This document shows positions 1 to 22,593 of a stretch of 23,560 bases of DNA, piece after piece. This stretch comes from Chrysochromulina tobinii (taxonomy: Eukaryota; Haptophyta; Prymnesiales; Chrysochromulinaceae), in assembly GCA_001275005.1 (NCBI GenBank), contig JWZX01001356.1:1-23560 (forward strand), in the 5' to 3' direction. The notes beneath the pieces are model-generated. The model was not told the DNA's origin. It saw only the letters and a list, made by a program, of their open reading frames with translations, and did no database searches. Both the position numbers and the translations under genes were made by a program. How positions within the stretch are numbered: position 1 is the first letter of the stretch; every line of letters starts with the position of its first letter.

Positions 1-2
1 GC

Positions 3-371
3 CTCGCCATCGAGCTCGCGCATGGAGTGGGGGTCTCGTGGGACGGCCGTGTCCATCGCCATTGCACGGCGGTCCCGCGGCACGTGGCGCCGAGGGATCA
101 CCTGTACGCCCTATTCCTGGGCCAGTACACGCGTGTGATGAATGCGTCAGAGCGGGTGGCGGAGCTGCGGATGGCGCTGCGCGCCCAGGTCGAGGCGCGC
201 CGCCGGCAGCGTGGGCCTGAGCTGGGCGTTGGCAGCGTGGTGTGGGCCAAGCTGTATGCCCGTGGCAGCGGGTACCTGAGGGCTCAGGGCGTGGTGGCCA
301 AGATTGACGCTGAGGGGGTCGTGTGGGTGATGTGGACTGGGGAGCGAGGGCCGGCGCGCGGGTGGTGGTAG
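3..371 (+). CDS. 3' end of an unrecognised coding region, cut by the window edge
   Basis: The frame is open from the window edge to a TAG at 369-371, giving about 122 residues; the true start lies outside. I do not firmly recognise it. The first third holds a compact stretch with VSWDGRVHRHCT followed by an arginine, then LYALFLGQY. A His followed some residues later by an Arg, at the end of a domain, is what the C-terminal half of a 2-oxoglutarate/Fe(II) dioxygenase core looks like; algal transposon-borne TET/JBP-like proteins are one possibility. This is a weak guess. The middle is basic (EARRRQRG). The tail (VVWAKLYARGSGYLRAQGVV, then VVWVMWTGE) has the rhythm of a small beta-barrel, such as the end of a retroelement integrase or a Tudor-like fold. 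It could be the end of a mobile-element ORF or of an ordinary gene. Confidence 0.4.
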   Translation, partial: LAIELAHGVGVSWDGRVHRHCTAVPRHVAPRDHLYALFLGQYTRVMNASERVAELRMALRAQVEARRRQRGPELGVGSVVWAKLYARGSGYLRAQGVVAKIDAEGVVWVMWTGERGPARGWW

Positions 372-3439: not shown

Positions 3440-4585
3440 ATGGAGACAACACGCTCGTTTCCAGGCTCATCAGCCCTTGACCGAGCGGCGCACGCCTCGC
3501 CCGATGGCCGGACAGTGACGTTGGTCTTTGGCACGATCGATTTTTTGGAGTTGCTGCTCAACTGGAGCTGCCACGCTCTCGCACTTGGAGTACACTGGTT
3601 TGTGCTAGTCGCCATGGACGCGCAATGCCACCAGGCGCTCCTACAGAATCCGATGGCACGTGCTCACGCGTTACTGCTCCCGCAGTCACGCAACGTCTCC
3701 AAGATGACTGTCATTGGAGATCGCCAGCGTTTTGGACTGAGCGTCTTGGAACGCGGGTTTAACATTGTGCACTCTGATGCAGACGCCTAGTAGTAGGTGC
3801 TAAGTCATGGTCTGGATCAAAAAACCTACTACTTTGATCCAGGACTTACACGCCTACAAGATCCGTGGCCGGTGCTAAGTCATGGTGACGACATCGTAGC
3901 AGAACGTATCTGGGGTAAGCCACTCTCCGTCGTGCGCGCCTGGGGTGCGGCCATCTGCACCGGTTGGTACTTTGTGCGCTCGACGCCCGCAGCTATCGCG
4001 GTGGCTCGGGCGACTCGCGACGAGATCGCCAAGAAGCGTGCTCGGCAACCCAATTGGCAAGCGTCGGATCAATACTGCTTGAATGTGGCCCTCCACAAAA
4101 GGTTTGCATTGCGCTGGGACGGCAACCAGACCATGCCGCCGGCGTCCTCGATGGCGACCAAGTATGTCGATCAGCAACCAAGCCGCGGCACGGCGACCAC
4201 TGAGAAGGGGACAGTCCGCGTGGCGATGCTCGCACATGCGATCATTCCACGTGCGTGCCCGGTGCTCTCCGCGACGGAGCTCACCAGCGTTGAGCGCGCA
4301 AGACCGGGCGAGCGCCTGCACGGCAAAGCTCACTGGTGGCGAGTGCTGCTACAGAACGCAGTGGTGCTCCACTGTTTCCCGCCGGGCGACACGCCGCAGC
4401 CCACGGAAAAGCGCTTCATCTTTATGGGGCACCCAAAGCACACGCAGGCCGAGGTGGCGTTTGCCAAACGGCAGAACTTGTGGAGGCTGCGTGAAAACTG
4501 GTTTCAGTTGATTACGAATAGGAGTAGAGACACGACACCTGGCATTTTGGGCTCGGGCTTCCTCGCCATGTGTAGGTCGTCGTGA
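3440..4585 (+). pseudogene. Nucleotide-diphospho-sugar transferase-like gene (PF03407 type), interrupted by three TAG codons
   Basis: Two open stretches lie in the same frame. The first (ATG 3440 to 3787) carries the family's opening, LLNWSCHALALGVHWFVLVA, and ends on GFNIVHSDADA, the DxD metal- and sugar-nucleotide-binding region. The second resumes with TRLQDPWPVL, a Gly/Trp/Phe-rich core (CTGWYFVRST), a SDQYCLN element and a terminal HCFPPG / MGHPKH region. Both halves are well preserved over ~380 codons, so the break looks recent. TAG TAG TAG at 3788-3796 separates them, within an apparent 60-bp insert (3788-3847). Removing 60 bp gives DADATRLQDP, the spacing expected of the family, but no GT-AG or GC-AG intron I tried between 3743 and 3860 removes a multiple of three. 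It is a young pseudogene, a gene with a noncanonical intron, or an assembly artefact. No signal anchor is seen, so a 5' exon may be missing; the frame is open upstream to 3326 without an ATG. Confidence 0.65.
3788..3847. repeat. 60-bp insert made of local direct and inverted copies, with three stop codons
   Basis: Arm A, AGTAGTAGGT (3789-3798), is the exact reverse complement of 3824-3833. Arm B, CTGGATCAAA (3812-3821), is the exact reverse complement of 3833-3842 and could form a 10-bp hairpin with an 11-nt loop. The 16-mer at 3796-3811 is repeated exactly at 3871-3886, just outside the insert. The arms interleave as A-B-A'-B', so the two pairings together would be pseudoknot-like. Nearly every base from 3789 to 3842 belongs to a repeat. 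Confidence 0.8.
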
Positions 4586-6317: not shown

Positions 6318-9300
6318 TCACGTCTTCTGGCTCTTCCTCAAATCCTTCTCCTGCTCCGAAGGGGCGCTCATCACGACCTGCGGCACAACCTCAATGATCT
6401 TGACGGTGACCTTCTGCATGTTCGGCCCATAGACAGTCTCCTCCTTTTCGGAGCGCGGCTCGAGATACGTGCACGGCGGGTAGACGCATTCGAACTCATC
6501 TGGGTATACTGAGAAGGGTTGCACGACGGCCCCCATGTGAGCAGCGGAGTCGACGCGCACCTTGAGCAGCAGTGGCATCAAGGGGGCCTCCGGATTGAGC
6601 TTCATCCGCGCCGCCACGTCAGCAAGTACGCCCTTCTCTGAGATGGCGCGGTTCATCGACATGGACATCGGGCTCAGCTCAGTGCCACCGCGCTGCTTGA
6701 ACTCGGAGGCAACATCCAGGTTGCACATGCCACGCCAAAGTACCCTCTGGGGAGTGCTCTTAGCGCCGGCGGTCGTCTCATCGTCGGGTGCGCCAGCGAC
6801 TGCCGCGGCCGCCGCGGCTGCGGCCGCCGCCGCCTCGGCTGGCCGCGCATTAGCCTTGGCCATCTCGGCCGCGCGGAGCTTTTTGATGGCCTCGGTGAGC
6901 AGTGCGACGAGGGCGGGGTACGGGTGCGGCCGCTCCGGCGAGCAGCCATCGTGCAGCGGCCGGTTGATCGACCGAAAGACGGAAGATGAGTACAAGCGAA
7001 GTGCGAGCACGTGCGCGCGCTTGAGCCCGGCCGAGGCCGCGGCAGGCAACGCCACGAAGTCGTCGAGGCTGAGGCCCCTGTTCCCCTGGTCGATGTGCGA
7101 CGCGGGCTTGAGCTTCCCAGAGTCCTCAGGCAGCGATGGCAGGCGCGAGAAGTCACCGGAGCGGTGGGAGCGCACGTAGGTGAGCCAGTCCCTCTGCGTC
7201 CAGCCGTACTCGTCCGTATCGGGCTCCGCGGCGCTCGCACACGCCGTCTCGATCTCGTCGATGATGGCGCCTTCGCCGCCCAACATCTTGGCCCTGAGTT
7301 CGTCTTCCGTCTGCAGCCCGAGGAGCTTGTGCAGCGCGGACAAGCCCTCAATCGGGCGGCCAAAGCGAATCTTCTCAGCGAGGTACTTGTTTTCAACACT
7401 CGTATGGTCGTTGATGGACGAGGCGTCGAACATCAGCTCGTTGAGCGACTTAGGTGCCGCCGCCACGGTGGCCTCGCGGTCGACCTGCATGAGGACCATT
7501 TGCTCCTGGCAGAGCGGGCATACCATCGGACGCCCTTGCAGCTCTGTACACGCCCAGCGCGTCGGGAGCCCCTTGTGCTCCGTGTGCTTGGCGCAGCCGG
7601 GGCAGCCGAGCTCGGCCACAGCCGTAAGGCCGGGAAAGTCGTGGATAATGGCGTCCGCGATCGCCTTGATCTGCAGTAGGATGGCCCATAGCTCATGACG
7701 GTTGGACTTCTTCCCGCGCATCTCCATGCACAGCTCATACTCGCCTTTCTTGAGAGCCTTTTCGTGTGTCGAAGTCTTCTCGCCCGACACGGCGCCCGTG
7801 CGCAGCTCGAGGAGCAGCAGCGCGGAATCTTTGGTGCGCGTCTCGATGAGCGCGCCGCTCTTCCAGAATCGATGATACTTGCCGAAGCCGTAGCACGAGG
7901 CCGTGAGCCGCTCCGGAATCCCAGGGGGGGCGATGCTCCCGATGCGATAGGACATGGCGAGCGTCTCGCGCGCGTCGCCGTCGGCGTGGCCCATCGCCTC
8001 ATTCCACTTCCACATAGCATCGGTCGGTTGGTTGGGCGGCAGGCGCATCGGCATCACCCAGCGGCGCCCCTGCTGCGTGTGCTCTGCAAGGAAGAGGACG
8101 CCACTCACGCTCATCATCAGCAACACCTCGGCGTAATCGTCGCGCTCCAGCCCGAGAGAATCCCACATGAGGGGGAGCAACTCCTCACGAAGCTCGCCGC
8201 TCTTGACCAGGCAATCTATGGCCGGCAGCAGCGTCGCCGCGCGCTGCTGGTCGTCGCCGATCAAGAGCGCGCCTGTGTGGCCCTTCGTGAAGAATTGGCG
8301 GTTGAGCCGGTGGTCGACGAGCGGCTTGAGCAACCGCACGACGTAATTGGGCTGCAGGTAGATGATGCCGCAGCTCGCGAAGATCTCGCCCTGGTTGACG
8401 AGCAGCTGCAGCGCGTCATCTAGCACTGCGGCGTCGCCGGCCAGCCCCATCTTGGCCGCCACCTCGTTGACCCACAACTGCTTCGCAGAGCGCACCGTCA
8501 TGTACGCGCGGGATCCAATCTCGCGGTTCTCGGCGTCCCACTCGCCGCCGCCGCCGCCGCCGCCACCGCCGCCGCCGCCGACGCCGCCGCTGCCGCCGCC
8601 GACGCCGCCGTGGGCGCTCTCGCCCGCTGCCGGCGTCGCCTCCGTGCTGTCCTTTTTCGCTTGGCGCTGATCGATTCCAACGACCTTGGCCGCTTCGATG
8701 GGATCGCGCCCGTCGCGCAACGCGCGCAGGTACGTCATGGCGAGCACCCACGTGCGAGGGATAGTCTGGCCGACCGAGGGGAGCAATGGGGGCTTGGCGA
8801 GCAGGAGGGACTCGATTTGGAGGCGCAGAGAGCTCAGCGACTGGTCGCCACCCGCGATGGATGAGACGCACATGACCTTATCCTGCACACGCAGCGAGCG
8901 TTTCTTGACATCAAGGGCGCTCTGGTGGCGCTCGACTCCCTTTTTGATCCAGTCGATCTGCTTGAGCGCCGCGTGTGCAAAGGCCTCGTGCGAACGATCC
9001 TTGGCGTCGTCCGGCACGAGCTGGTCGCAGTGTGTGAGCACGAACTGCACGACCGCGTCGGGTGCGCCGGTCGTCAGGTAGTCCATCCAACGGCCGAGCA
9101 CATTTGAGTACTCCGAATCGAGCCATTCCACGGGATTCGCGGGCACGGTCATCAAGTAGAGCGACCCCGGTACAATGTACGGCTGCAAGCCCGCCGCGTA
9201 CTGCGGCTGCCCCGCGAGGTCCCACATCGAGACGAGCACATGCCCGTTCTCCTTGGTCGAGTCTCCCACGGCCATCGAATAAATGTCGAGCTGGATGGTT

Positions 9301-12300
9301 CGCTCGTCTTTCCCTGCCGGGCGGGGCGCACCCGCACGCAGCCCGCGCTGCAGCGACGTCTTGCCGCTCTCGCCGTGACCGAGCAGGACGAGGCGCGCCG
9401 TGTTGGCCGTGGTCTCGCCGCTCTTGACGAGCTCTTGGAAATAGCGCCGGATGGCGGCGATGCCCTGCTTTGCAAGCGAGAGCGGCGGCCGCTGTAGCGG
9501 ATTGTCCCTCACATCGATGCGCTCGAGGTTCTTGAGGTTGCACACGGAGAGCACGAGGGCGCCTAGCCGGTTCTCGGCGACGTCGAGGTGCTTGAGCGAG
9601 TTGAGCTGCCCGATGGAGACGGGCAGGTAGGTGAGCAGATTGGAGCGCAGGTCGAGGGTCTCGAGGTTCACCAGCAGCCCGAGAGACGCGTGGAGCTCGT
9701 AGATGCGGTTGTTGTGCACCGAGAGCTTCTTGAGAAAGCGTAATTGGCACAGGTCTTCGGGAAGGGTGGCGAGCTTATTGCCCGAGATCGAGAGCGTCTT
9801 GAGTGAGAGCATCTTGCCGACCGAGTTGATCTCCTCGATCTGGTTCTTGTCCATCGAGAGCTTCTCGAGGCCGGCTAGCGCGCCCATGGACTCGCACAAG
9901 AGGTTGAGCTGCTCCTTTTGCTGCGCCAGGTACCGCTTGAGCGAGTCCATGCTCATCGTCTTGAGCTCCTTGTCGCCGAGGACGCGCACGTTGCTCGATA
10001 TGTCCAGGGTCTTGATCGGCGTCGTCTTCAGCTGGTCGACGATCGCCGTCAGACCTTCCGGCCCCATGTCGTTCGTGTTCACGTTGAGATCGGAGAGGGA
10101 TGTGTTGTTTGTGACGAGTGCACCGACGATGACGGAAGAGACAAAGGTGAGGCTCTGTTTCGAAAGGTCAATCGAGCGGCCGGTCTTCGCATTGAGCCCC
10201 TTGAGAAGGTGCACAGGCAGCAGCCCGCCCTCGAGCACGATCATCTGCAGCGATGGGTTCAAGCGCACCGCTTCCGCGAGCGCAAAGACGCCCTTGTAGT
10301 TCTGCTTGACGGAGAGATCCGCGTTCGGGTCGATGGTGCACAGGGGGTTGTTGGACAGGTCGACGGTCGTGATGGTAGTGTTTTTGAGGAAGGCGGTGGC
10401 CAGCGCAGTCGCGGCCAATGTCTCGAGGCCCGTGTTGGACAGATCGACGGCCGTGATCGAGTTGTTGAACTTGAGCACGCCGGCGAGCATGCGGTACGCT
10501 CCCGGCGCGAGCTGCTGACCGCGCAGCTTCAGCTCCGTCGCGTCCGATTCGATCTCGAAGGCGTAGCATTTGAGGGACGAGAGCTGGCATTGGCAGTCGT
10601 CGCTCAGCAGCAGACCACCCATCATCCACAACCCGTCGTCCTCGATCGGGTTGTCGCGCACGTCGAGCGCCGTGAGCGAGTGGTTGAGCTTGATGGCGCG
10701 TGCAATCACGTTGGCCGAGATGGCGTTGTTCGAGATGTCGAGCGACGTGATCGCACACTGCTCAGTGCGCAGCACCTCGACAAAGAGGATCCCGATCGCC
10801 GAGTCAGTCAACTTATTGGACGAGAGCTTCAGCTCCTTGAGGAACAGGCACATGCCCTGCTGCAGCGACTCGAAGAAACGAGTGCCGCCGCGGTCGCCCA
10901 GGCTAATCTTGGACAGGTTGAGCGTGCTGAGCGTCGACGCCTTCGCGCGCTGCAGCTGCTCGAGCACGCCCCCGCCCTCCGACGAGGATCCGGGGTTGAG
11001 CCGAAGCGACTTGACCGTCTGGTTGACGGCGAGCAGCGCGCCCACGACGGCGCATGCCCACCGGTGCAACGCTGCCGGCACTCGGTTGTCCTTCTTGTCG
11101 GTCTCCTCGACGGTGAACCCCACATCCCACAGGTCGATCTGCTCGACGCTCCGATTGCCGTTGAGCTCCTGAACGGGCAGGACGGCCAACGCGACCTCAG
11201 AGCCACGCCCTGGGTGCTCGAGGTGGAGCGACTGGAGCGTCGAGTTGGTTTGGAGCGCTTCGGCGAGCGCCTCCACGTGCTCGGCCACCACGGAGCGGAG
11301 CGTGAGCTTCGTGAGGGACGAGTTTGAGCGGAGAAGTCCGCAGAGCAGTACAAAGGAGCGGAGCGACCGGACGTGCTCGCGATCTCGCAAGTCGTACACG
11401 TGGCTGGTCATGCCCGGGTGAAGCTCATAGATGTCACAGTAGCCCACCTTGCCCTCCTTGTTCGCGAGGAGAGCGCGGCCGAGCTCCTCGCGCTCGGCCT
11501 CGCCGAGGTCGCCGCCGGGCGCCATGGTGATCTCGGTCAGGGTCTTGTTGGCCTTGAGCACGCCGGCGAGCATGACCGCGTCGCACGCCTGCGCGGACTT
11601 CCACGCGAGCGTGCTCGTCTTCTCATAGAGGGCAAAGATGTCGCACTGCAGGAAACAGAGCTGATTGCCGCTCTCGAGCAGCGCGCGCCCTATCATCTCC
11701 TTGGCTCGAGAGTCCAGATGAAACGTGCGCTCCATACGCGACATGGGCTCCGCCTCGACGATGCCAATCGATTCCAAGCGGAGCCCTTTGACGCGTAGGA
11801 GCTCGGAGAGCGCCGGCTCGCGCCCCGGATTGTTGTACGACACGTCGATGCGTCGCATCGCATCACACGTACGGAGCGCCTGGCAGATGATTCGAATCCC
11901 ATCGGGGCCAAGCCCATTGTTGGATACATCCAGCGTCGTGAGCGTCTTGTTCATAGCCAGGCCGCGCCCGAGCGTGCGCAGCAAGTGCTTGAGCCCGCCG
12001 AGCACATTAGATCCCAAATCGAGCGAGGTGAGATTGGGTGCCGTCATCAGCATGCGCGCGATGCCCGCCGCGTCCGTCTCGCGCTTGCCCACGCCGTTGC
12101 CGGCCAGGTTGAGCGTGACGAGCTTCTCATTCTTCTCCATGATGAGCCAGAGCGCCTGCAGCCCCGTCTCTCTCAGCAGCGCATCTTGCTTCGAAAAGTC
12201 CCATGAGGGTCTCCGCTTGGCGAGCAGACTGCCCAGGAAGCCGCCGGCGATGCGGCACGTGTTGTTCATGAACGGGTTGTTCAGGAACTTGGCGGCGGTC

Positions 12301-14045
12301 GCGTCGGTCGCCCAGCCTTCCCAACCATCTTGGGCCTGAATCAGCAGGTGCTGCGCGAAAAGGCCCTCCTGGAAGGAGAGGTGCTTGAACTGGTACTGCG
12401 CGGCGGCCACCTCGGTCTGCACCTCGAGCGTCTTGGTGAGCGGCATCCCGTTGTCCTCCTTGTTCAGGTGGAGCCAGAGGGTGAGACCCTCTGGGTTGGG
12501 TAGGTCAAGCAGCAGCGCCTGCGCCACGTGTGCCGACGAGAACTCGCGCCGCCCATTGATCTGGTTCATCACGGCCACGTTGCGCAGCATTGAGAGGCCG
12601 AACGACTGAGCGCGCTCACCAAGGAGCATCTTGAGGTTCGCATTGACGAGCATCATCACGGTGTCGACGAGCTTCTTGGGCATGAGCAGCTCGATGCGGT
12701 TGAGCTCGGTGCGCTGCACCTCGGGCTTGACCGCCTCGCGCAGATAGTGCGAGCCATGCTTGAAGACCTCGTACACCTCATTGGCCGTCAGCTTGAAGAC
12801 CTGCTTCTCCTTCGACTCGCCTTTCGCTACGCTATTGTTCTCCTCCTTTTTGACCTTCGCGTCCATCCCATCATTGAAGCGCAGCTCCTCAAACTTCGTC
12901 TGTGCCTTGCGCGACGGCTTCTTTTCGCGCTCCTTGACTGGAGCGCTCGTCTCAACACCAACCTTGGTGTCCTTCGCGTCCTTGCCCTTGGCGTCCCCAG
13001 TATCCTTTGCCGCCATCGCGGCGCCACGGTCAAGGTTGAAGAGGCGCATCCACTCGTGCACGAGGTGATCGGTCGAGGTGAGGTCTCCGGACACCTGGCT
13101 GCGCAGCAGCCGCTTTGAGATGGCACTCTCGATGCCGAGCTCGTAGAGCTCGATGCGGTTCGAGGGCAGCTTCGTCAGGTCCTCGCCGCCCGAGGTGAAG
13201 ATGAGCACGAGCAGCGAGAGCAGCACGGGGATGCCGGTCGCGTCCACGAGGAAGACGAGCTTCTCCTCGAGCAGCTTATCGAGCTCAGCCTCGGGATAAT
13301 GGCCGGCGAGCCGCTGCCGGAAGAAGTGGTAGTGGCCGTACGCCTCGTTCTTCGGATCGAGTGCGATCTTCATCACGTCCTCGTAGTGCAACTCGGCCTC
13401 GCCGTACATGAAGAAGTCGCGGAATGAGATTTTGAGCACCGCCACCGCGAGCCGAAAGTGCGTCGGGTCCAGATCCTCGAACTTGTTGCGCAGTTGCACC
13501 ATCGTGATTTCGACGCACTCGCCCTCAACCTCTTCACCCTCTTTGTTCACGTAGAACTTCTTCTTCGCAGGCTTTGCGATAATGTTGCCGTCCGCGTCGA
13601 GCTTCGGAGGACCGCCGTCAAGCAGCCCGTGCTTGATGATCTCTGGCCATTTGGCGCTGTCGTTGTCGTCCACCGGTAGTGGGGCCGAGGTCTGCAAGAG
13701 CTGAACCAGCTGGATGATCTGCGTGCCCGTCTTGCACGGTATGCGCGCACGCACCACGTCTGTCACGCATGCCTCGACAAGCCCGCCGCCCTCCGAAACG
13801 CGTCCACCAAGAGGCTCGTCCATTGCCTTCTCGTGGCAACGCACCGGCTCCTTGAGCTCGCCAAATATGGTATCGTTCACGAGCGCACTCGCTTCTGCTG
13901 GGTCTCGCGCCACCTCCTTGAGCAGGAACTTGAGCACGAAGGCAAAGACGGGCAAGAACTCCTCAGCTAACATGTACAACTCGTCGGTCCGCGCGACGAT
14001 GCGCTGCCAGCATGCGGCCGCTGAGATCCCCTGCTTCGCCTTCTG

Positions 14046-14104
<59 letters not shown>

Positions 14105-17100
14105 TTGCCTCGTCCGAGGTCTTGTCTTGAGCCTTCCAGTGCAGCAAACCGAGGGGACTCGCTTGCACATCCGCCGTGCCCAGCTTTCGGATCAGCCTGG
14201 CCAGGTTGAGCGCCACGCGGTGGCGCAGCTCCATGCCATCGGAGCCGCACATATCCTCCAGGATCTTCGCCTCGAGTTCACTGGCAGGCGCCGAGGCGGG
14301 CGAAATAGAGAGCACTCGGTCGACTCGATCGAGCAGCGAGATGCCGCAGCGCTGCGGTGTGTGGCTCTTCATCTGCCTGTCAAGCTTCTCGAGGTACTTG
14401 GACGTTGGCGTCTCCCCTGTGCCGAGCTCACGCAGCACCGTGCTGTGCGTCGATGGCGAGCGCAGCTGAGCAGCTGGGTCAAAGTAGGTCACAATGTCCT
14501 TGGGGCGTGCGCCCTCCAAAGTAGGGTCGGCCGCGGACGCGCCTTGGCTAGCCCCAGGCTCGGTTGGTGCGGACGCCGGCTTCGACTGCACCGCGCCTGC
14601 CTTACTGTCGAGTATCTCCTTGTCCCGGAGCTCCATCGTACCTTTTCGTTCCCTGGCGGGCTCCCTGGCGCCACTCTCGCCCTTGCGCGGCGAGCGCCGC
14701 GTTGCCTCGGCCGAAGCGGCGATCGCCGCGTCCTTGTTCTCGTCGGCATCCTCGCCAACAGAGTCGACCTTGTGCAGGCTGTCGACGCAGAGTAGGCCCT
14801 CGAGCTCCGTGCGAACAGACTCCTTGATCTTATTGTACGCTTCGTCGAGCCACTTGCGCACCTCCCCGAGCGAGAGCAGGTGGTCGAAGAACTCGGAGCC
14901 TTGCATCTGGATGTTGATCACGCGTCGCTGCTGCTCGTTAGTGAGCTCGTTCAGGTTCATGATGACGAAGCGCGACCGGTACAAGCTGAGTGTGACGCCC
15001 TCGGGACGGCTCGTTACCAACACGCGGTTGCCGCTCGGTACGAGCTCCGAGTGCACGAACTTTTCGACCTGGTCGCGCAAGCCGGCGGCCTCGTCGACGC
15101 CGTCGAGGAGCACCACGAGCGCGCGCATCTGGTACGCCTGCATGAGCATCGCGCACCATGACTCCATCTTCTTGCCGCTGTACACGGACTCGATGTACCG
15201 AGGCAGCAGTTGGAAATCCCCTTCCTTGTCGCGCTGGCCCTCGCGCACTAGGTACACGATGCGCTGCACGAAGACTACGACCGGTACGAGCCGGATGCCA
15301 TCCTTGTGCCCAGTGCCACCGCCAGATCGAAGCCGGTCGGCGAGAGTGTACACCGCCTGCTTCGCCATCCACGTCTTGCCAGTGCCCGGCCCGGCGCGCA
15401 CGAGCACCGGCTGCGCTGAATGCGAACCCATTGATCGGTTTGGCGAGGGGATGAGCAGCAGCGTCACCAAGTCGCGCACGTCGTTGACGCGCCAATTTTC
15501 GGGCACCGCGCCGGCCGCATTGTCCTGCACGTCGGTCGCGGTGGACACGTGCAGCGTCTGGTCCTTGATGCGCAACAGATTACCCGTGATCGCGTCCTCC
15601 ACCATCGCCTCGCGCTCGACAATATCCTCAAGGTAGTTGAGGCGCGCCATCTCGAACGCAGACACGTCTTTGAAGCGCTGCACCGAGTGGTTGAACTCAT
15701 TAAGGGCCGTCGTGATGAGCACCGCCTCTCCCGCTAGAGACGAGACCATCGAACGCACTGTGCCGTCCTCCATCAGCCGATTCTCGAGCACGTTGACTAC
15801 TGTCCGGTTGGAGAGAGTACCCACTTTGTCCGTCGTCTGCGAGAAGCCCGAGCGCACTATGAGCGGCTTTTGTGAGCTCACCACGAGCTGCGTGTTCGCC
15901 GGCATGTTCACCGCGAGGTCACCACGAACCGCCGACGATGAGCCGTCGGAACTGGCTAGCTTGAAGTACTCCAAGACTTTCCCTGGATTGGCCTCGTCCG
16001 GCTTGCACACCGTCACCCAGCCCGTCGTCGTCGAGCCCTGCACCAGCAGCCGGTGGCGCGAACCCTCCTTGATGTCTGTGGGATTCTGCATCCCCTCAAA
16101 CTCCTTTCCCTGGCCGAGGGCCCACTCCTTCACCTCAGCGTCGCAAGCGGCTCCCTCATGCTGATAGAGAAGCCGCGTGCCCGGCGGGTGTCGCGGGTTG
16201 GTCGTGCGCACGACCGTCTGTGGCGTCGGGTCGATGATCGACTCGGAATTGATCCCATCGACCTTGACGACGACAGAGTCGTCCCTCAGCACTCGCTGCA
16301 CCGTCGCGCATCGACCTTCGGTGCCCGCCCGGCTTGCGCATCGACAACCGCGCGCCTTCCGCGCACCCGTACGCGAGCCAGGGGTTCACCTTGAGCAACG
16401 CCAGATGCAACTCGAGCGCGCCCGTTTGCGGATTCTCCACCCTCCAGTCGACGCGCAGCTCGAGCTCGCCGTCGCCCTGCAGCCCGTCGTGCTCGAGCCC
16501 GTGCTCAGCGCCCACCCGCCACTCATTGGCAAACTCGATCCGGTCGAGGAACTCGATGCCCTTCGAGGGTGCGATCTTCAGGCGGCCGATGACCGCAAGC
16601 GATTTGGTCGATCGCAGGTCGAACGCCTCGGCGTCGGGTAGCGTCGAGATGTCGCCCTGGTACAGCTCGTACCCCGAGCGGTAGCAGTTGAACATGAGGA
16701 TCATCGCCGCAGGCTCTGTGACGCATTCGTGCCGGCTCGGCTGACCTTCGGGTCGACCAGCTGGTCGTTTCGTCTCGTCGCGTGCTAGCCTGTTGAGAGA
16801 GCCCTGCCCACCCGCCTGCGCACGCATCCGCTTCATGAGCTCCTCGGCCCTCTTCTTGTCCTCATCAGACTCTTCGGCTGCGCCGGCCGCCTCCTTCTTC
16901 TTCTCCTTCTCCGCCGCCGCCGCCGCCGCCTTCTCCGCATCCTCCCGCTGACGCTTCTCAAACTCGCGGCGCGCCTTGGCCTCAGCGGCCAGCTTGCGCT
17001 CCTTCTCCTCCTCGAGCTTGGCCGCGGCCGCCTTTTCGGCCGCCGCGCGCTGCTCGTACTCCTTCTTGGCCTTCATCTTGGCCTCCGCCTCCTTTCGCTC

Positions 17101-18777
17101 AAGCTCAATTCGCTTGACCTCGAGCTCCATCTTCGCCTTCTTCTGCGCCTCCTCTCGCGCCTTCTTCTCGTCGAGCTCCTTCTTCGCCTTCTCGTCGGCG
17201 AGCTTCCGAGCCTTCTCTTCAAAGGCGCGCTTCTGCTCCATCGCGCGCTCCATCGCCGCCTTCTCCTCCGCCTGCTGCTTGGCCAAGAGCGCCACTGGGT
17301 CCGAGACGCCAGTCCTACTCATCTCGGGCGAGGCGCCGCGGGCGGTCGCACCGCCGCGGGCGGTCGCACCGCCGCGGGCGGTCGCACCACGCGGGCTCAA
17401 CGACATCGCCTGCATCGGCGAGGTGGCGCGCGCGGTCGAAGCGCGATGCGACGGCATCGGGAAACTCTTCGAACGATTCATCTCCGCTGGCGCCGACGCG
17501 CTCGACGGGATCTCTCGCTGTCGAAGGTTTTCGATCATGTCCTTGGTGAGGACGGTGACCCAGCCGACGGCAGGACCCTGCCAGTTTCCCTCGAGCGCAT
17601 ACGCCGCGCGCCACGACCCGTCGGCCGTTCGGCGCACCTCGAGTAGATGGATCGAAGCGCCAGGGGCTAACTCGCGAGCTCGAGCTGAGCTCAAGTCGAA
17701 CTCTGTTCGTGCCTGCAGCGCCTTCTTCGCACTCACCTCCATCGTCGGTCGGCCCGTCGTTTTGAGGTTGATCGCGCCCGTCGCCGTGATCGACGTGATC
17801 CAGCCATACGGGGCCAGCTGATTGTCGAGGGCGACGCACACGCGGCGCGAACCGTCCGAGTTCTCGCGCTCCTCGACGACGGCACAAGTCGCGTTCGGCC
17901 CGAGCTCACCCGCCTTGTCGCTTGTGAGCTCGAAGGCTTTGCGCACGAGAGCAGGCTTCGTCGCGACGATCAGACCGAGGGGGCGCGAGGCGAGTATCAG
18001 GCGCGCGGCCGCCGGTGGCACGTCGTTGTAGTTCATGGTCGACGGCCCTCCGGTGGTCGACTGCGCCGAGGCCGACGCACCCGCACCGTTGCTGCTGCCG
18101 GCCCGACGCCCCACCAGAAGGGCCAGGTTCTCCGTGCCATCCTTGGTGACGGCTGTGACCCATGCCTTGATGGTGCTGGCGCCCTCAGGCGCGTACCCGA
18201 TGCGCCAAGCGCCGTCGGCCGTCGCGCGCGCCTCGAAAGCATGGATGAACGCATTGACCGCCAGCTCGCCTGCCTTGCCAGACGTGAGATCGAAAGCGTC
18301 GCGCGCGGCCAGTGGCTTGGCGGCGATGACCTGGAGGACAGGGTGGCCGAGCTCATGAAGTTGCTTCTTGCCGTCCTTGGTCACGCCGGTGAGCCATCCG
18401 AGGATGATCGCGGAGCCTTCGGGCGTGACAGCCATTCGCACCGCGCCGTCAGCCGTCTGCCGCGACTCGATTGCGTGCACCGCCTTGCCGCTGGGCAGCT
18501 CGCCCGCCTTGGCTGAATTGAGATCAAAATCGACACGCAGCTGCAGCGGCTTCGAGCCGGACACCTCAAAGAGAGGGCTGATTGCACACTGAATAATCGG
18601 GTAAATCGGCCTGCTTTCTGGGACCGAGCTCAGCCGATCGTTGCTGGACTTCCCACCTTCGTCCTTTGGAGAAGGGCGTTTACTGGCCCTGCGCGAGCTC
18701 GATTTGGCTCTCGCTGAGTCGGAAGACTGGGTATCCGCAGCAGCCATCTTGGTCTTGCTGAGCTTTAAAGGTTTCAT
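6318..18777 (-). CDS. Giant NACHT-LRR-ROCO protein with C-terminal ADP-ribosyltransferase (exons 18777-16390 and 16295-6318)
   Basis: Exon 1 gives 796 residues from ATG 18777 (AAAAAATGAA; ATG 18747 in AAGATGG context is an alternative). Exon 2 adds 3,325 to the stop at 6318, giving about 4,121 residues. Approximate order: SH3-like repeats 60-420; minisatellite linker ~463-481; charged coiled coil 493-654; fifth SH3-like repeat 930-990; NACHT 1075-1275 and 1805-1865; LRRs 2185-3065; Roc 3090-3270; COR 3300-3630; Cys-rich patch 3690-3735; ADP-ribosyltransferase 3860-4115. The key P-loops, Walker B, DxxG and the R-S-E residues are all present, so no module looks dead. NACHT/LRR proteins usually oligomerise on ligand sensing, Roc-COR acts as a GTP-dependent dimer switch, and ADP-ribosyltransferases modify proteins with NAD+. 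A cytosolic sensor with its own modifying effector is my inference. There is no signal peptide or membrane segment. If the intron were wrong, this would be two adjacent ORFs (18849-16156 and 16301-6318). Confidence 0.8.
6340..7080 (-). other. Arginine-type ADP-ribosyltransferase domain at the C-terminus of the giant protein
   Basis: The N-terminal half carries ALRLYSSSVFRSINRPL, the usual helix before the ART core. The catalytic R-S-E set is present: R in VLWRGM, S in GGTELSPMSMSMN, and E-F-E at 6497-6489 inside YPDEFECVYPPCTYL. The E-x-E spacing is that of arginine-specific mono-ADP-ribosyltransferases. The S-T-S element is altered to S-M-S. It sits where LRRK-type ROCO proteins have a kinase. 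Confidence 0.8.
6793..6838. repeat. GCC/GCG-rich tract coding poly-Ala in the ART domain
   Basis: Mixed alanine codons on the minus strand form a run of about a dozen alanines between the N-terminal ART helix and the catalytic core. Codons are mixed, so it is older or more stable than the pure CCG tract. Confidence 0.8.
7480..7610 (-). other. Cys-rich, possibly zinc-binding patch after COR
   Basis: About 40 residues contain CPGC, then His residues, then WAC and CPLC. Paired CxxC knuckles at this spacing suggest a zinc ribbon or treble-clef element. It links COR to the ADP-ribosyltransferase part. Confidence 0.5.
7790..8865 (-). other. COR domain of the giant protein, with a Gly-rich insertion
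   Basis: It opens with IPRTWVLAMTYLRALRDG, typical of COR after Roc. The signature GEIFASCGIIYLQPNYVVRL lies further on, and the domain ends through RRWVMPMRLPP and YHRFWKSGAL. Between the first and second parts sits a Gly/Ser-rich loop coded by the CCG tract at 8543-8610, which probably loops out of the fold. Confidence 0.85.
8543..8610. repeat. Imperfect (CCG)n tract coding poly-Gly within COR
   Basis: Runs of CCG are broken by CCA, CGA and CTG variants; on the minus strand they code glycine with a few Val and Ser. The tract is in frame inside the COR domain. Confidence 0.9.
8870..9400 (-). other. Roc (Ras-of-complex) GTPase domain of the giant protein
   Basis: It starts directly after the last LRR with LVLLGHGESGKTSL (G1 P-loop), followed by WDLAGQPQY (G3, DxxG) and THCDQL (G4-like TxxD, the variant common in Roc domains). 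All nucleotide-binding motifs are intact. Roc normally works with the following COR as a GTP-controlled dimer switch. Confidence 0.9.
9480..12125 (-). other. Leucine-rich repeat region, two classes, in the giant protein
   Basis: From 12125 down to about 9990 the repeats are of ribonuclease-inhibitor type, as in NLRs (LVTLNLAGNGVG, LTSLDLGSNVLGG, LTTLDVSNNGLGPDGIR, ITAVDLSNTGLE), many with irregular spacers between units. From about 9880 to 9480 they become the typical 23-residue class (LKTLSISGNKLATLPEDL, LETLDLRSNLLTYLPVSIG, LERIDVRDNPLQRPP), the form that normally precedes Roc in ROCO proteins. A helical linker of ~20 residues (RYLAQQKEQLNLL) marks the change. Confidence 0.85.
14047..14103. 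repeat. (CCG)19 tract coding poly-Gly in the giant protein
   Basis: An uninterrupted run of 19 CCG triplets on the plus strand codes poly-glycine on the minus strand, inside the long insertion in the NACHT module. Perfect triplets make it a likely length-variable, slippage-prone site. Confidence 0.95.
14865..15425 (-). other. NACHT NTPase core of the giant protein
   Basis: The Walker A motif is GPGTGKT (15371-15391, minus strand). The Walker B is VVLLDGVDEA, with the small residue and second acidic pair typical of NACHT rather than NB-ARC. A sensor-1-like VTSRPEG follows, then NELTNEQQRRVI. The helical part continues only after a long insertion, at about 13100-13275 (GIPVLLSLLVLIF, then LYELGIES), which matches the region after the NACHT core in other family members. 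Confidence 0.8.
16296..16389 (-). other. 94-nt GT-AG intron joining the two frames of the giant gene
   Basis: On the minus strand the donor is CTCAAG|GTGAAC and the acceptor is GGTGCAG|CGAGTG. The length, 94, is one more than a multiple of three, exactly what is needed to pass from the upstream frame to the downstream one. The downstream frame has no ATG at its start (only GTG) and is closed by a stop at 16388-16386, so it needs an upstream exon. The upstream frame runs on to 16156 only as Arg/Gly/Asp-rich, domain-free sequence. No strong branch site is visible, so a single-base sequencing error is the competing explanation. Confidence 0.6.
16816..17298 (-). other. Long charged coiled coil of the giant protein
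   Basis: About 160 residues are almost wholly Ala, Glu, Lys, Arg, Met and Leu, with recurring EEKAAMERAMEQKRAFEEKA-like heptads and no Pro or Gly until the end. This is a single long alpha-helix or coiled coil, likely a spacer or an oligomerisation element in front of the NACHT. Confidence 0.75.
17335..17388. repeat. 18-bp minisatellite, three perfect copies, coding GGATAR repeats
   Basis: The unit GCCGCGGGCGGTCGCACC occurs at 17335-17352, 17353-17370 and 17371-17388. On the minus strand it codes repeated G-G-A-T-A-R in the linker between the SH3-like repeats and the coiled coil. Identical copies imply recent expansion, and the unit length keeps the frame. Confidence 0.9.
17515..18590 (-). 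other. Four tandem SH3-like repeats at the N-terminus of the giant protein
   Basis: Each ~80-90-residue unit follows one pattern: a short strand, KPL.xR..FDL.S.KAGEL, a strand ending in E.R, ADG..R, a strand, then GWVT..TKDG..NL. Examples are AFDLTSGKAGEL and TEFDLSSARARELAP. Alternating short strands, conserved Gly/Trp and the terminal GWVT resemble bacterial-SH3-type small barrels. I infer ligand- or protein-binding. A fifth, more diverged copy lies in exon 2 at about 15715-15900 (KPLIVRSGFSQTTDKVGTL). Confidence 0.7.
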
Positions 18778-19453
18778 TTTTTCCAAAGCCGTCCACGCCT
18801 GAATCAAGTTTTTTCCAAACAAAGACGTCAGGTTCAGTTCGTTACACACAAGTGTATGTATGTGTGTGAATGTGAATGTGTGTCTGTGTGACTTCTAACA
18901 CAAGTCAGGTACATGCCGGGCATGGTGCGCGCGATGCGGAGGGAATAACGTGCGGACCCAGGTACTGTGGTGTCGTGTCGTGAAATCTTGTGTACTTGAA
19001 TATTTCGCAACGACGCCGCCCGGGGCGACTTACGGGGCGACCGCCGTATCGACACTGTGAAGGTCTGTCTTCTGTCGGTATCCATGAAAGGACCGAGGTA
19101 GGACCGATGCCAGAGGCCAGTAACCTATGAGGCTGACAGAGGTGAGAGACCGGAAAACCGGAATCGGGGGTCGTGGAGAATCTGGCCCGATGGCTTCACA
19201 TGTCCGGGCGCGATTTGCTTATAATTTGTGGCATCCTAAATTGCGAATTGCATATAGTTTGAGATAGGGTCAGTTGAATCATAAAGCTTCGTACGATTCC
19301 GTAGCAATTTACCGGTAGGTTGCAACGGGCCGTAACTCCCCATGCTCATAGCTTGCGACCTGGTGCCTCTGCCGCTCTGCAAAAAGTGAGGCGGCTGCGC
19401 GGCCTAACTGTTCGCGTTGTCTGAACAACTACAAACGCAAGCCCGGGTACGCG
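18778..19453. promoter_or_regulatory. Divergent intergenic region with TG-rich and AT-rich blocks
   Basis: It separates the ATGs of the giant gene (-) and the FkbM-type gene (+), so it should hold both promoters and 5' UTRs. A TG-rich microsatellite-like stretch lies at 18849-18891. An AT-rich island at about 19208-19310 (with TTATAATTTG and CATATAGTTTG) stands out against the GC-rich surroundings, 140-250 bp before the FkbM ATG, and is the best promoter candidate. No gene is seen. Confidence 0.5.
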
Positions 19454-20695
19454 ATGGTCATGGTCTGCGTTAGATCCCAGCGCGGCTCTCACCTGCCACC
19501 TTCCTTTGGCATATCCGCGCTGACGCTCCTAATTGCGTTTTGTCCACTCATTTTCGCTGGTTTGTCGCCGTGTGCGCCGAGTGTCGAGTGCCGTGCGAAC
19601 ATCCTCGATTGGTCGGTGCGGCATGGGCCTGGCTTCATCTCGCGCAATCTCGGGTTGAAGCGGCTGACGGTCGAGCTCGACGCCATCCTGCCCTGCACCC
19701 AGCCTGCAAACGGAGATGCGGTCCCTGTTGTCCTTGTAGACGTGGGAGCTGGAATCCACGGGCTGCAACCGCAATTCATCAACTCTGCGAAAAGGCTGCA
19801 CGAGGACGATAGCGATTCGTTGTGGCTCCTCGGAAGCTTTGGTAGCCGCGGGCATGTGCACGCCTTCGAGGCCAACGCGATTAAGGCGAATGAGCTCCGA
19901 TTAGCAGCCGCGACGCGCAGCCGCACCGCGAACTTCACTGCGCATTATACGGTGCATACCGTCGGCGTGGGGAGAACTAACGGTCAGACCCATGTCAATG
20001 AGTGTGGCCCTTGGAATATATGGTCCATCGAGGCGAACCGAAGGAGTTCGGTACGTGGGTGCAAACAGGGCGCTGCCATCGCACTGACTACCATGGATGC
20101 GTTTCTTGCGTCGCTTCCCCTCCGCACGGTGCCTCTCTACATCAAGGTGGACGTCGAAGGAGGCGAGTGGGACGTGCTTGCGGGGATGCATTCCACTCTG
20201 CTGAGCAAGCGAGTCGCGCTTATGTCGTTTGAGTACGCCGTATTCTGGCACAAGTCGTTTCATTCCAATAGGGAATTGTCCGCCGCGCAGAGGCAGAATG
20301 CGAGCAACGTGAGCCTGTATCGCTTCCAGAAGACGTTGACTGGATATGGCTATGACACATACCTCATCAATGCCGGAGACGCCACGAGCGGTGTCGTGCT
20401 TGTGCCGGTGCACGGCGACTTCTGGCACAATGACCTTGAGATCTGCTTTAACCGTTCGCACTTCTACCAAAGAAGCCACTGCTGGAATGACGTGCTCGCT
20501 GTGCGGCAAGGCGACACGTGTGTGCGAGAGGCGCTGTTTGGCAACGCACTGCGCCGGACGCACGAGTCGCTAGGGAGGGAAGTGGACGCTATGCGTTTGG
20601 GTGGCGCGACTGGCCACTCAGTGGTAGCATGGATGCCGCCGTTCGCGGCACATTGCAACTGTTTGTGGGGACCCACAGAGCACACGTCCGTGTAG
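19454..20695 (+). CDS. FkbM-type SAM-dependent methyltransferase, predicted type II membrane protein
   Basis: A 413-residue frame starts at ATG 19454 (a second ATG at 19460 would change little) and ends with TAG at 20693-20695. Residues ~17-37 are a hydrophobic signal anchor, which points to the ER/Golgi. Motif I is VVLVDVGAGIHG (~92-103), the acidic residue that would bind SAM ribose is in HAFEAN (~137-141), and the hallmark IKVDVEGGEWDVLAGM lies at ~230-245. These match the FkbM family, which methylates sugars and other small groups. Four N-glycosylation sequons (NFT 160, NAS 282, NVS 285, NRS 333) and many cysteines fit a lumenal enzyme. A role in glycan O-methylation is inferred; the substrate is unknown. 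The protein is longer than a minimal FkbM domain because of its N- and C-terminal extensions. Confidence 0.85.
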   Translation: MVMVCVRSQRGSHLPPSFGISALTLLIAFCPLIFAGLSPCAPSVECRANILDWSVRHGPGFISRNLGLKRLTVELDAILPCTQPANGDAVPVVLVDVGAGIHGLQPQFINSAKRLHEDDSDSLWLLGSFGSRGHVHAFEANAIKANELRLAAATRSRTANFTAHYTVHTVGVGRTNGQTHVNECGPWNIWSIEANRRSSVRGCKQGAAIALTTMDAFLASLPLRTVPLYIKVDVEGGEWDVLAGMHSTLLSKRVALMSFEYAVFWHKSFHSNRELSAAQRQNASNVSLYRFQKTLTGYGYDTYLINAGDATSGVVLVPVHGDFWHNDLEICFNRSHFYQRSHCWNDVLAVRQGDTCVREALFGNALRRTHESLGREVDAMRLGGATGHSVVAWMPPFAAHCNCLWGPTEHTSV

Positions 20696-21219
20696 GTCGG
20701 TGAGGGAGGAAACACAAGCGCGATGACGCGCGATGGTGGCGTGTTTGTTAAGTGTTTGTTGGGGTGAACCGACCTAACTCGTTAACTCCTAAGTGAATGC
20801 GGCGATCAACACACGATCGGTCGGTGCCCGCGAGCGCGGACCGGACGTTACGAAAAACTTGGAGGCACGCGGGCGCTGGGGGGTGGGGGAGGCGGATCGA
20901 CTCTGATCCGGCCTGATCCGCTACGGTTGGTATCGACAATTCGGCCGTCAATTCGACGTCGGGCAGTGAAAGGCTGAAAGCACTCGGCTGTAGAAGAATC
21001 CTGAGTCCCTGTTCGCACGGGTATAGGGTGGGTTATAGGGTGGGTGTCTGCAGGCACCGGGTGTCCGATAGGTGTCCGGAAAAACCTCAATCAAAACCAC
21101 ACACCGCCCGTCACTGCTGGGCACGTCAGTTCCCAATTACGGGCCATCTTTCAGGCGATCCGAGAAACGCCACGCCGCGGCGCGTTGGCCCTGCCAGTGC
21201 CAAATAAGGGACAGCGCCC
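20696..21219. other. Intergenic region upstream of the antiporter gene
   Basis: It holds the FkbM 3' UTR and the antiporter promoter. A G-rich run is at 20871-20893, a direct repeat TGATCCG occurs twice near 20904-20920, and a tandem 12-mer with quadruplex potential is at 21022-21045. No ORF with coding character is present. Confidence 0.5.
21019..21045 (+). promoter_or_regulatory. Tandem 12-mer forming a G-quadruplex motif
   Basis: TATAGGGTGGGT is repeated exactly at 21022-21033 and 21034-21045, preceded by GGG at 21019-21021. That gives five GGG tracts with loops of 1-5 nt, a textbook intramolecular quadruplex motif about 175 bp before the antiporter ATG. A regulatory function is inference. 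Confidence 0.5.
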
Positions 21220-22593
21220 ATGAGCGATTCCCCGGAGATGGAGTCCCGTGCCGAGAAGATGACCAAAGAGCTGGATCCGCCGGGGGCGGGTTCTTTATGT
21301 TCCCCAGCATCCACAGCGGCCAGGCTCGCGCTCAAGATTTGGGTCCTTGACCAGCCGATCTTGGCATGCCTGCACATCTTTCTGCCGTTTGCAATCGTCT
21401 GCAAAACCACGATGCAAGAGGAGGATGCTAAGAGTGAGGCGATCACGTTCTTGACCTGCCTGCTGGCGGTCGTGCCGCTCGCAGAGCGCCTCGGGTACGC
21501 GACCGAGCAGGTGGGTGCTTACACGGGAGACGTTGCGTCGGGTCTGCTAAATGCCTCGTTTGGAAACGTGCCAGAGCTTGTCGTGACCATCATTGCGATC
21601 AAGCAGGGCCTGGAGCTTGTCGCCATCCAGATGCTCATCGGCGGCGTACTTTCATGTCTGCTGCTCGTGACCGGCCTCTCCGCTTCCATCGGCGGCCTCA
21701 AGCACAAGGTGCAGCACTACAACACCGCCAACTCATCCACGCTGATCAGCATGGTTCTGATCATCGCCACCTTCGCGGGCCTGATCACGATGGCGGAGAG
21801 GTACGGTGCGGGGTTCGACACGCCTCAGCAGCACGGGATGCCAGGCGCGCTCGCCGCATCGCGCGCGCTCGCAGTCGTGGGCATGATCGTCTACATCATG
21901 TACCTCGTGTATTCGCTGGGGACGCACAAGGAAATGTTTGACGAAAAGGACGGCGAGCACGATGGCGGCGATGAGGAGCCCGAGCTATCGGCGTTGGCGG
22001 CGATTTGCATGATGGGTGCGCTCGTCGCTCTCATCTCATACTTGTCTGACGGCCTTGTCGACGCAATTGACGGCGCGGCTGAGCACAGTGGCATCCCGTC
22101 GCTGATCCTATGCGCATTGATCATTCCGAACGTAAGTAACGCGCTCGAGCACGCCGTCTCCATCCAGATGGCGTGGAAGGGCCGGCTGGATGCGTCGATC
22201 GCGACCTCCGTTGGCTCTGCCGCGCAGCTCGCCATCTTCTTCATCCCGTTTGCCATCCTCGCCGACTGGGTCGCGGGCGGCTACATCGGCTTTGGCATGG
22301 AGCCAATCCTGGTCGGCGCGCTCGCGATCAGCGCCCTGTTCGCGGAGATCGTGCTCTCGTCGGGGCGCTGCACGTGGATGCACGGCGTGCTGCTCCTCAC
22401 GACGTACGGCGCTATCATGGGCGCCTTCTGGCTTTCAGCGAGCATCGCGCCCAGACAGGTGTTCGACGGCGACGATGTCACAATCGTGCGTGCTGCATGG
22501 GTCAAGAGTGCGACTGTCACAACCCATAATGCTGGCGATGTCCCTAAGGCAACCCTCGCCCAGCAGCAGCCTTTTGCCCTGATACCAACGTAG
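21220..22593 (+). CDS. Ca2+/H+ antiporter, CAX/VCX1 type
   Basis: A 457-residue frame starts at ATG 21220 and ends with TAG at 22591-22593. About eleven hydrophobic segments run from ~44 to ~408. The first alpha-repeat is GLLNASFGNVPELVVTIIAI (108-127) with the G-N-x-x-E core; the second is IPNVSNALEHAVSI (302-315), then TSVGSAAQLAIFF, giving N-x-x-E-H. These are the cation-binding repeats of the CAX family, which exports Ca2+ from the cytosol into vacuoles or other acidic stores in exchange for protons. An acidic loop (EKDGEHDGGDEEPE, ~242-255) sits between the two halves, as usual in CAX. The Gly usually found before Asn in the second repeat is Ser306, and the first repeat has VPE where ATE is usual. 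The length fits plant and algal CAX proteins. In a calcifying or Ca2+-signalling alga it would serve Ca2+ homeostasis; that link is inference. Confidence 0.92.
   Translation: MSDSPEMESRAEKMTKELDPPGAGSLCSPASTAARLALKIWVLDQPILACLHIFLPFAIVCKTTMQEEDAKSEAITFLTCLLAVVPLAERLGYATEQVGAYTGDVASGLLNASFGNVPELVVTIIAIKQGLELVAIQMLIGGVLSCLLLVTGLSASIGGLKHKVQHYNTANSSTLISMVLIIATFAGLITMAERYGAGFDTPQQHGMPGALAASRALAVVGMIVYIMYLVYSLGTHKEMFDEKDGEHDGGDEEPELSALAAICMMGALVALISYLSDGLVDAIDGAAEHSGIPSLILCALIIPNVSNALEHAVSIQMAWKGRLDASIATSVGSAAQLAIFFIPFAILADWVAGGYIGFGMEPILVGALAISALFAEIVLSSGRCTWMHGVLLLTTYGAIMGAFWLSASIAPRQVFDGDDVTIVRAAWVKSATVTTHNAGDVPKATLAQQQPFALIPT

What the first reader, a model, noticed from the sequence alone, without database searches (positions are those of the whole stretch)
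6318..18777. One gene fuses an NLR-type receptor, a ROCO switch and an ADP-ribosyltransferase
Seen: NACHT motifs, two LRR arrays, Roc G1/G3/G4 motifs, a COR signature and an ART R-S-E set in one continuous coding chain of ~4,120 residues, behind tandem SH3-like repeats and a coiled coil. Known: NACHT-LRR proteins are oligomerising sensors, Roc-COR is a GTP-driven dimer switch, and ARTs modify targets with NAD+. I know of no described protein combining all of these. Inference: a self-contained sensor-switch-effector, possibly an algal immune or stress receptor.
Basis: partly seen in the sequence, partly recalled or inferred. Interest (0 to 1): 0.93.

Follow-up and report, generated by a model that had tools for sequence, protein, structure and literature searches.

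The report
Giant algal receptor with ADP-ribosylating tail
A single-celled alga (most likely the haptophyte Chrysochromulina tobinii) carries a family of giant genes that join an animal-type immune-receptor core (NACHT plus leucine-rich repeats), a GTP switch of the LRRK2 type (Roc-COR) and an enzyme domain that attaches ADP-ribose to targets, a combination I could not find described.

The parts
6318..18777 (-). whole gene as read here: ATG at 18777, stop at 6318, in two frames
   Evidence: ORFs; continuous homologue P0004
17539..18597 (-). four tandem SH3_3-like repeats (P0002 residues 100-452)
   Evidence: the repeat profile matches P0026 932-995 (E 1.1e-5 in a search of 59 proteins), where P0026 passes Pfam SH3_3 (31.4 bits, cut-off 27)
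16810..17307 (-). K/E/A-rich stretch, probable coiled coil
   Evidence: read directly from the translation; no coiled-coil program run
16405..16797 (-). conserved N-terminal module of unknown fold, preceding NACHT in paralogues
   Evidence: 22 matches in the genome, the window included; in one ORF with NACHT in C684, C1859, C1912 and C1000 by ORF length and frame
16327..16379 (-). stretch in which the reading frame changes between the two ORFs (near 16,340); no room for an intron
   Evidence: alignments of P0004, P0007, P0009, P0011
15741..15887 (-). fifth, divergent SH3_3-like repeat (P0001 167-215)
   Evidence: E 8.7e-8 in a search of 59 proteins
14886..15713 (-). NACHT nucleotide-binding domain (P0001 225-500): GPGTGKTW, LLDGVDEA, TSRPEG
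   Evidence: under Pfam cut-off in this copy
13239..14021 (-). inserted domain resembling RelA/SpoT (alarmone synthetases) in a weak model (P0001 789-1049)
   Evidence: not confirmed by sequence
12207..13238 (-). helical and winged-helix part of the NACHT module: GIPVLLSLLVLIF and FKHLSFQE signatures
   Evidence: conserved columns, motif table; assignment to GxP and WHD is recalled knowledge
9966..12128 (-). LRR array A (ribonuclease-inhibitor-like, LRR_6)
   Evidence: limits approximate
9456..9923 (-). LRR array B (LRR_4/LRR_8), directly before Roc
9024..9395 (-). Roc GTPase domain: GHGESGKT, WDLAGQ, THCD
   Evidence: (over cut-off)
7686..8708 (-). COR region (P0001 about 2560-2900)
   Evidence: profile-profile against COR of 6 bacterial Roco proteins: probability 86.5%, E 4.6e-6, 268 columns; COR-B 26.5 bits (cut-off 27) in C1000
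7506..7613 (-). C-x2-C pairs after COR, possible zinc site
   Evidence: the first pair kept in 6 of 6 rows
6360..7208 (-). ART domain (P0001 3060-3342); R3218, S3241, E3297-x-E3299

Best explanation
One gene of a haptophyte multigene family encodes an intracellular receptor of about 4,150 residues. Shown: N-terminal SH3_3-like repeats and coiled coil, NACHT core, LRRs, Roc, COR and a C-terminal ART are encoded in this order, and NACHT, Roc-COR and ART co-occur in single predicted proteins. Inferred: the SH3 repeats and LRRs bind a ligand or guarded partner; ADP-to-ATP exchange in the NACHT core opens and oligomerises the receptor, as in other NLRs; the Roc-COR pair acts as a GTP-dependent dimer switch that frees or aligns the ART; the ART then mono-ADP-ribosylates a protein, by its E-x-E motif probably on arginine, to change or shut down the cell. 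My probabilities: one gene with this architecture 0.93; NLR-type sensor with the ART as enzymatic output 0.6; defence against viruses or bacteria as the purpose 0.4.
Against: The window copy has a frame break, and NACHT and ART miss Pfam's cut-offs in it. 4 of 15 aligned ARTs have lost R, S or the second E (P0004, P0005, P0013, P0017), and the C689 copy also lacks the arginine. The NACHT model was poor (mean pLDDT 47), and no NLR structure was recovered by fold. The 47 homologues are predicted proteins, not all independent: P0005's ART is letter-identical to C1000's, P0019 and P0029 are named C. tobinii, P0030, P0031 and P0033 are near-copies of P0029. No expression, ligand, activity or cell-death evidence exists. 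28 of 47 homologues lack Roc-COR, so the tail is not needed for whatever the core does.
Confidence: 0.6

Rival explanations
1. An LRRK2-like housekeeping or stress switch, not an immune receptor: Roc-COR controls membrane, cilium or cytoskeleton, NACHT serves as an assembly scaffold, and the ART regulates the protein itself or a trafficking GTPase.
For: The Roco review describes LRRK2 acting on Rab proteins at membranes (PMC6337361, passages); many brown-algal ROCO genes respond to stress conditions other than infection (PMC11378527, abstract passage).
Against: Many copies, decayed ART copies and swapped C-termini (EF-hand, second NTPase, WD) look like a receptor repertoire under changing selection; selection itself was not tested.
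Confidence: 0.25
2. A decaying or pseudogene copy of a real family: the frame break in this copy is genuine.
For: Two frames meet near 16,340; other copies also carry breaks (a TAG inside a C1859 match; the C2149 NACHT split over two frames).
Against: Both ORFs are long (3,355 and 912 aa), motifs are intact, and the published C. tobinii assembly used 454 reads, a method known for small indels (recalled).
Confidence: 0.12
3. Two or more neighbouring genes read as one.
For: The two ORFs are in different frames.
Against: P0004 and the single ORFs of C684, C2149, C1859, C1000 and C1830 together cross every junction.
Confidence: 0.03

Closest known systems
NLR receptors of animals (NACHT-LRR, NLRC3-like) and bacterial Avs/bNACHT
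   Same: NACHT core with Walker A and B, sensor, GxP, winged-helix FxHxSFQE and C-terminal LRRs (motif meaning recalled)
   Different: Here a conserved domain is inserted in the NACHT module, and Roc-COR and an ART follow the LRRs; effectors of known NLRs are usually N-terminal (recalled)
ROCO proteins (LRRK1/2, CtRoco; LRR-ROCO of brown algae, PMC11378527)
   Same: LRR-Roc-COR order; PDB matches over LRR-Roc to LRRK1, LRRK2 and a 'Rab family protein' (6hlu, 8r4b) that I recall as CtRoco
   Different: No kinase found; NACHT-LRR in front and ART behind. Passages of PMC11378527 report LRR-ROCO, ANK-ROCO and TPR-ROCO-TIR; 'nacht' and 'adp-ribosyl' occur 0 times in its main text
R-S-E ADP-ribosyltransferases (ART2.2, HopU1, Vis, XopAI)
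   Same: fold and R, S, E-x-E residues; profile hit to XopAI E 0.0024
   Different: Fused behind Roc-COR in a giant receptor; secretion was not examined
Aplysia TLRs and MyD88 with Roc-COR (PMC9334734)
   Same: an immune-type receptor joined to Roc-COR (passages)
   Different: TIR rather than NACHT; no ART in the same protein in the passages seen
RelA/SpoT small alarmone synthetases and CapRel
   Different: No sequence-level similarity found

Membership tests
NLR / NACHT STAND ATPases | Pfam NACHT over cut-off in this protein | tested here: not met
   16.2 bits, 22.7 as isolated domain, cut-off 26.7; paralogue C684 26.9 with neighbours
NLR / NACHT STAND ATPases | Walker A, Walker B (DGxDE), TSRP, GxP and winged-helix His motifs | tested here: met
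   which motifs define the family is recalled
NLR / NACHT STAND ATPases | LRR array after the NACHT module | tested here: met
NLR / NACHT STAND ATPases | NACHT fold by structure comparison | tested here: inconclusive
   model of low confidence, list filled by the insert
NLR / NACHT STAND ATPases | ligand-driven oligomerisation | not testable with these tools
   needs protein
ROCO | Roc domain with G motifs | tested here: met
   37.6 bits, cut-off 27; motifs
ROCO | COR directly after Roc, by profile-profile comparison with bacterial Roco COR | tested here: met
   probability 86.5%, E 4.6e-6, 18 family members against 6 bacterial proteins
ROCO | Pfam COR-A or COR-B over cut-off in this protein | tested here: not met
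   nothing in the window copy; COR-B 26.5 of 27 in C1000; the only COR-A match in the genome is another gene, C1624
ART, R-S-E clade | ART fold | tested here: met
ART, R-S-E clade | catalytic R, S and E | tested here: met
   present in this copy; 11 of 15 aligned proteins keep R, the first S and the second E
ART, R-S-E clade | Pfam ART over cut-off in this protein | tested here: not met
   13.5 and 21.0 against 22.3; over cut-off in C1830
ART, R-S-E clade | NAD+-dependent transferase activity | not testable with these tools
   needs protein
RelA/SpoT synthetase | fold | tested here: inconclusive
RelA/SpoT synthetase | Pfam RelA_SpoT or profile similarity to RelA/SpoT | tested here: not met
   0 of 13 rows match PF04607 at E<=5; hhalign probability 1.1%
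SH3_3 repeats | Pfam SH3_3 match in this protein | tested here: not met
   none directly; linked only through P0026

The most novel reading that the evidence does not exclude
The receptor carries a second enzyme, a RelA/SpoT-type nucleotidyltransferase built into its NACHT engine, so that ligand-driven opening could start two outputs at once: a nucleotide signal or tRNA-targeting shut-off (as in CapRel) and ADP-ribosylation by the tail. That would be a class of eukaryotic immune receptor in which stringent-response and NLR logic are one molecule.
Probability: 0.22. Interest if true: 0.9.

Novelty: new variant of a known kind. Interest (0 to 1): 0.72.

Why it matters
From recalled knowledge, immune receptors of unicellular algae are almost unknown, although haptophytes are important hosts of giant viruses. 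A family that joins two great regulatory scaffolds of signalling (STAND and ROCO) to an NAD+-using effector would show that NLR-type receptors with built-in enzymes exist in another branch of eukaryotes. It also offers a natural system for asking how Roc-COR drives an output other than a kinase. The RelA/SpoT-like insert, if confirmed, would be a new place for a stringent-response fold.

Tried and rejected
Rejected: separate genes (junctions crossed by single ORFs and P0004); known prokaryotic defence protein (PADLOC: 0 families for either ORF); a catalogued RNA gene in the window (Rfam: 0 over gathering score); a spliced junction near 16.34 kb (alignments in the two frames overlap or nearly abut).

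Led nowhere: NACHT by fold (model of mean pLDDT 47; its list was filled by the insert). Profiles against PDB: Roc-COR found small GTPases and LRRK1/2 over Roc only, NACHT found AAA+ proteins in the rows shown, COR found one unrelated chain at E 0.21. RelA/SpoT by sequence: Pfam, PDB profile, tblastn on plasmids and hhalign were all negative. The search for stand-alone relatives of the insert gave 10 proteins, 9 with no Pfam domain listed and 1 with PF02668. In one search two of nine hhalign comparisons (both with the ART profile) printed a stale earlier result and are not used, and one of 7 bacterial Roco proteins (Spirosoma) was dropped because my P-loop pattern missed it. One search failed and was redone; the repeat search used a wrong file and was redone. 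The NACHT tree (37 of 49 proteins, three near-copies left out on purpose, nine without a long NACHT match) clusters the Roc-ART proteins (3 changes, shuffled mean 9.6) but does not show a single origin, and several branches are long. The protein searches scored only the 2,458 and 2,079 candidates sharing most words and genome searches score only the best candidates, so counts are lower bounds.

Literature: ten searches of the open PMC library. Those bearing on absence in print are 21, 24, 25, 70, 71, 115, 120 and 127; no title or abstract start shown there names a NACHT-ROCO-ART protein, and (NACHT with alarmone synthetase) found 0 papers. I saw passages of nine papers, none whole: PMC7159879, PMC11378527, PMC8195603, PMC3482391, PMC6337361, PMC4580454, PMC12480563, PMC11249213, PMC9334734. 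The main text of the C. tobinii genome paper has 0 occurrences of 'nacht', 'leucine rich' or 'immun'. Most subscription papers and all bioRxiv preprints are outside the library.

Full report
What is there. The window is contig C523 of a 53.15-Mb genome in 2,253 contigs. The genome has 58 light-harvesting matches. Two homologues with NCBI names from Chrysochromulina tobinii (P0019, P0029) sit on contigs of 30,731 and 19,974 bases, the lengths of C2149 and C823 here. I therefore infer that the host is C. tobinii; the published assembly is 59 Mb in 3,472 contigs, 63.4% GC, from 454 and Illumina reads (passages of PMC4580454), so the copy held here is smaller.

Minus-strand ORFs 6318-16385 (3,355 aa, P0001) and 16156-18894 (912 aa, P0002) overlap in different frames. 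Homologues P0004, P0007, P0009 and P0011 align along P0002 and then along P0001. In the first frame the alignments run to 16,327 (P0004), 16,270 (P0009) and 16,228 (P0007, P0011); in the second they start at 16,349, or 16,379 for P0004. They overlap or nearly abut, which puts the change near 16,340 and leaves no room for an intron. P0004 (3,594 aa) reads through, 61.5% identical from there on.

Domains. Pfam on P0001 puts LRR and Roc over cut-off, NACHT (16.2 of 26.7) and ART (13.5 of 22.3) under, COR absent. The weak calls were tested in other ways.

NACHT: 14 of 15 aligned members match NACHT at E<=0.1. GPGTGKTW, LLDGVDEA and TSRPEG, and downstream GIPVLLSLLVLIF and FKHLSFQE, are conserved. 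From recalled knowledge these are Walker A and B, sensor 1, GxP and winged-helix signatures of NLRs. No NLR was recovered by fold, because the model of this part was poor.

COR: profile-profile comparison of 18 family members with COR of six bacterial Roco proteins gives probability 86.5% and E 4.6e-6 over 268 columns; the LRR part of the same bacterial proteins gives 0.0% and RelA/SpoT 0.1%. Pfam is weaker: nothing in the window copy, COR-B 26.5 of 27 bits in C1000, and the only COR-A match in the genome is another gene.

N-terminus: four repeats, 40.7% mean identity against 22.4% in shuffles; a profile of them matches P0026 at 932-995, where P0026 passes Pfam SH3_3. Pfam finds no SH3 in the window repeats themselves.

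A family. The Roc-COR-ART query matches 18 contigs, with 44 of 99 candidates scored, and the NACHT query matches 9 of those same contigs, upstream on the same strand: C523, C1859, C1912, C684, C1000, C2221, C2149, C1830, C1720. Of these nine, 6 have an ART whose alignment reaches the catalytic glutamate region (C523, C1859, C1912, C1000, C2221, C1830), 2 have partial ART matches (C684, C1720) and 1 (C2149) stops at a contig end. The N-terminal module precedes NACHT in all nine. Some copies are broken too (C1859, C2149). Of 47 homologues, 12 hold NACHT, HD/WHD, Roc-COR and ART (NACHT partial in P0012), 3 NACHT and Roc-COR without ART, 4 Roc-COR without NACHT, and 28 lack Roc-COR. They are predicted proteins and not all independent: P0005's ART is identical to that of C1000, and P0030, P0031 and P0033 nearly repeat P0029. 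Among the 28 are proteins with EF-hands, a second NTPase, ankyrin or, in Prymnesium parvum, WD repeats. The NACHT tree clusters the Roc-ART proteins but does not prove one origin.

How it most likely works. By analogy with NLRs (NACHT opening and oligomerisation), Roco proteins (GTP-linked monomer-dimer cycle, PMC6337361 passages) and R-S-E ARTs, I propose a sensor (SH3 repeats, LRRs), an ATP-driven assembly engine (NACHT), a GTP switch (Roc-COR) and an effector (ART). Only the parts list and order are shown; every functional step is inferred. ARTs and TIRs as suicide effectors, and COR proteins with rapidly evolving LRRs, are discussed for conflict systems in PMC8195603 (passages), which fits but does not prove a defence role.

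What is known. In passages seen, brown-algal ROCOs are LRR-ROCO, a red alga has TPR-ROCO-TIR, and the words NACHT and ADP-ribosyl do not occur (PMC11378527); Aplysia has TLRs with Roc-COR (PMC9334734). I found no report of the present combination in the searches listed. I file it as a new variant of a known kind: each module is known, while the assembly and the insert were not found described.

Noticed in passing
window 13239-14021 (minus): Conserved domain inside the NACHT module with a RelA/SpoT-like fold in a weak model but no sequence-level support.
   Followed up: partly
proteins P0020, P0021, P0025, P0027, P0032, P0035, P0036 and others: Related NACHT-LRR proteins that lack Roc-COR carry a second NACHT-like NTPase near the C-terminus.
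   Followed up: no
protein P0022: A Roc-COR-ART relative with EF-hands between the NACHT and HD/WHD parts, which suggests calcium control.
   Followed up: no
own genome, C2239:74801-75517: The genome has 38 ART-domain matches, one in a 6,180-aa open frame.
   Followed up: no
window 19352-20692 (plus): FkbM-type methyltransferase ORF (35.1 bits, cut-off 22.7).
   Followed up: no
window 21208-22590 (plus): Sodium/calcium exchanger-type cation antiporter ORF (103.9 bits, cut-off 24.9).
   Followed up: no
window 3797-4582 (plus): ORF with a sub-threshold match to a nucleotide-diphospho-sugar transferase (17.2 bits, cut-off 22).
   Followed up: no
window 1-370 (plus): Open frame at the contig end that looked to me by eye like a retroelement integrase tail; not tested.
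   Followed up: no
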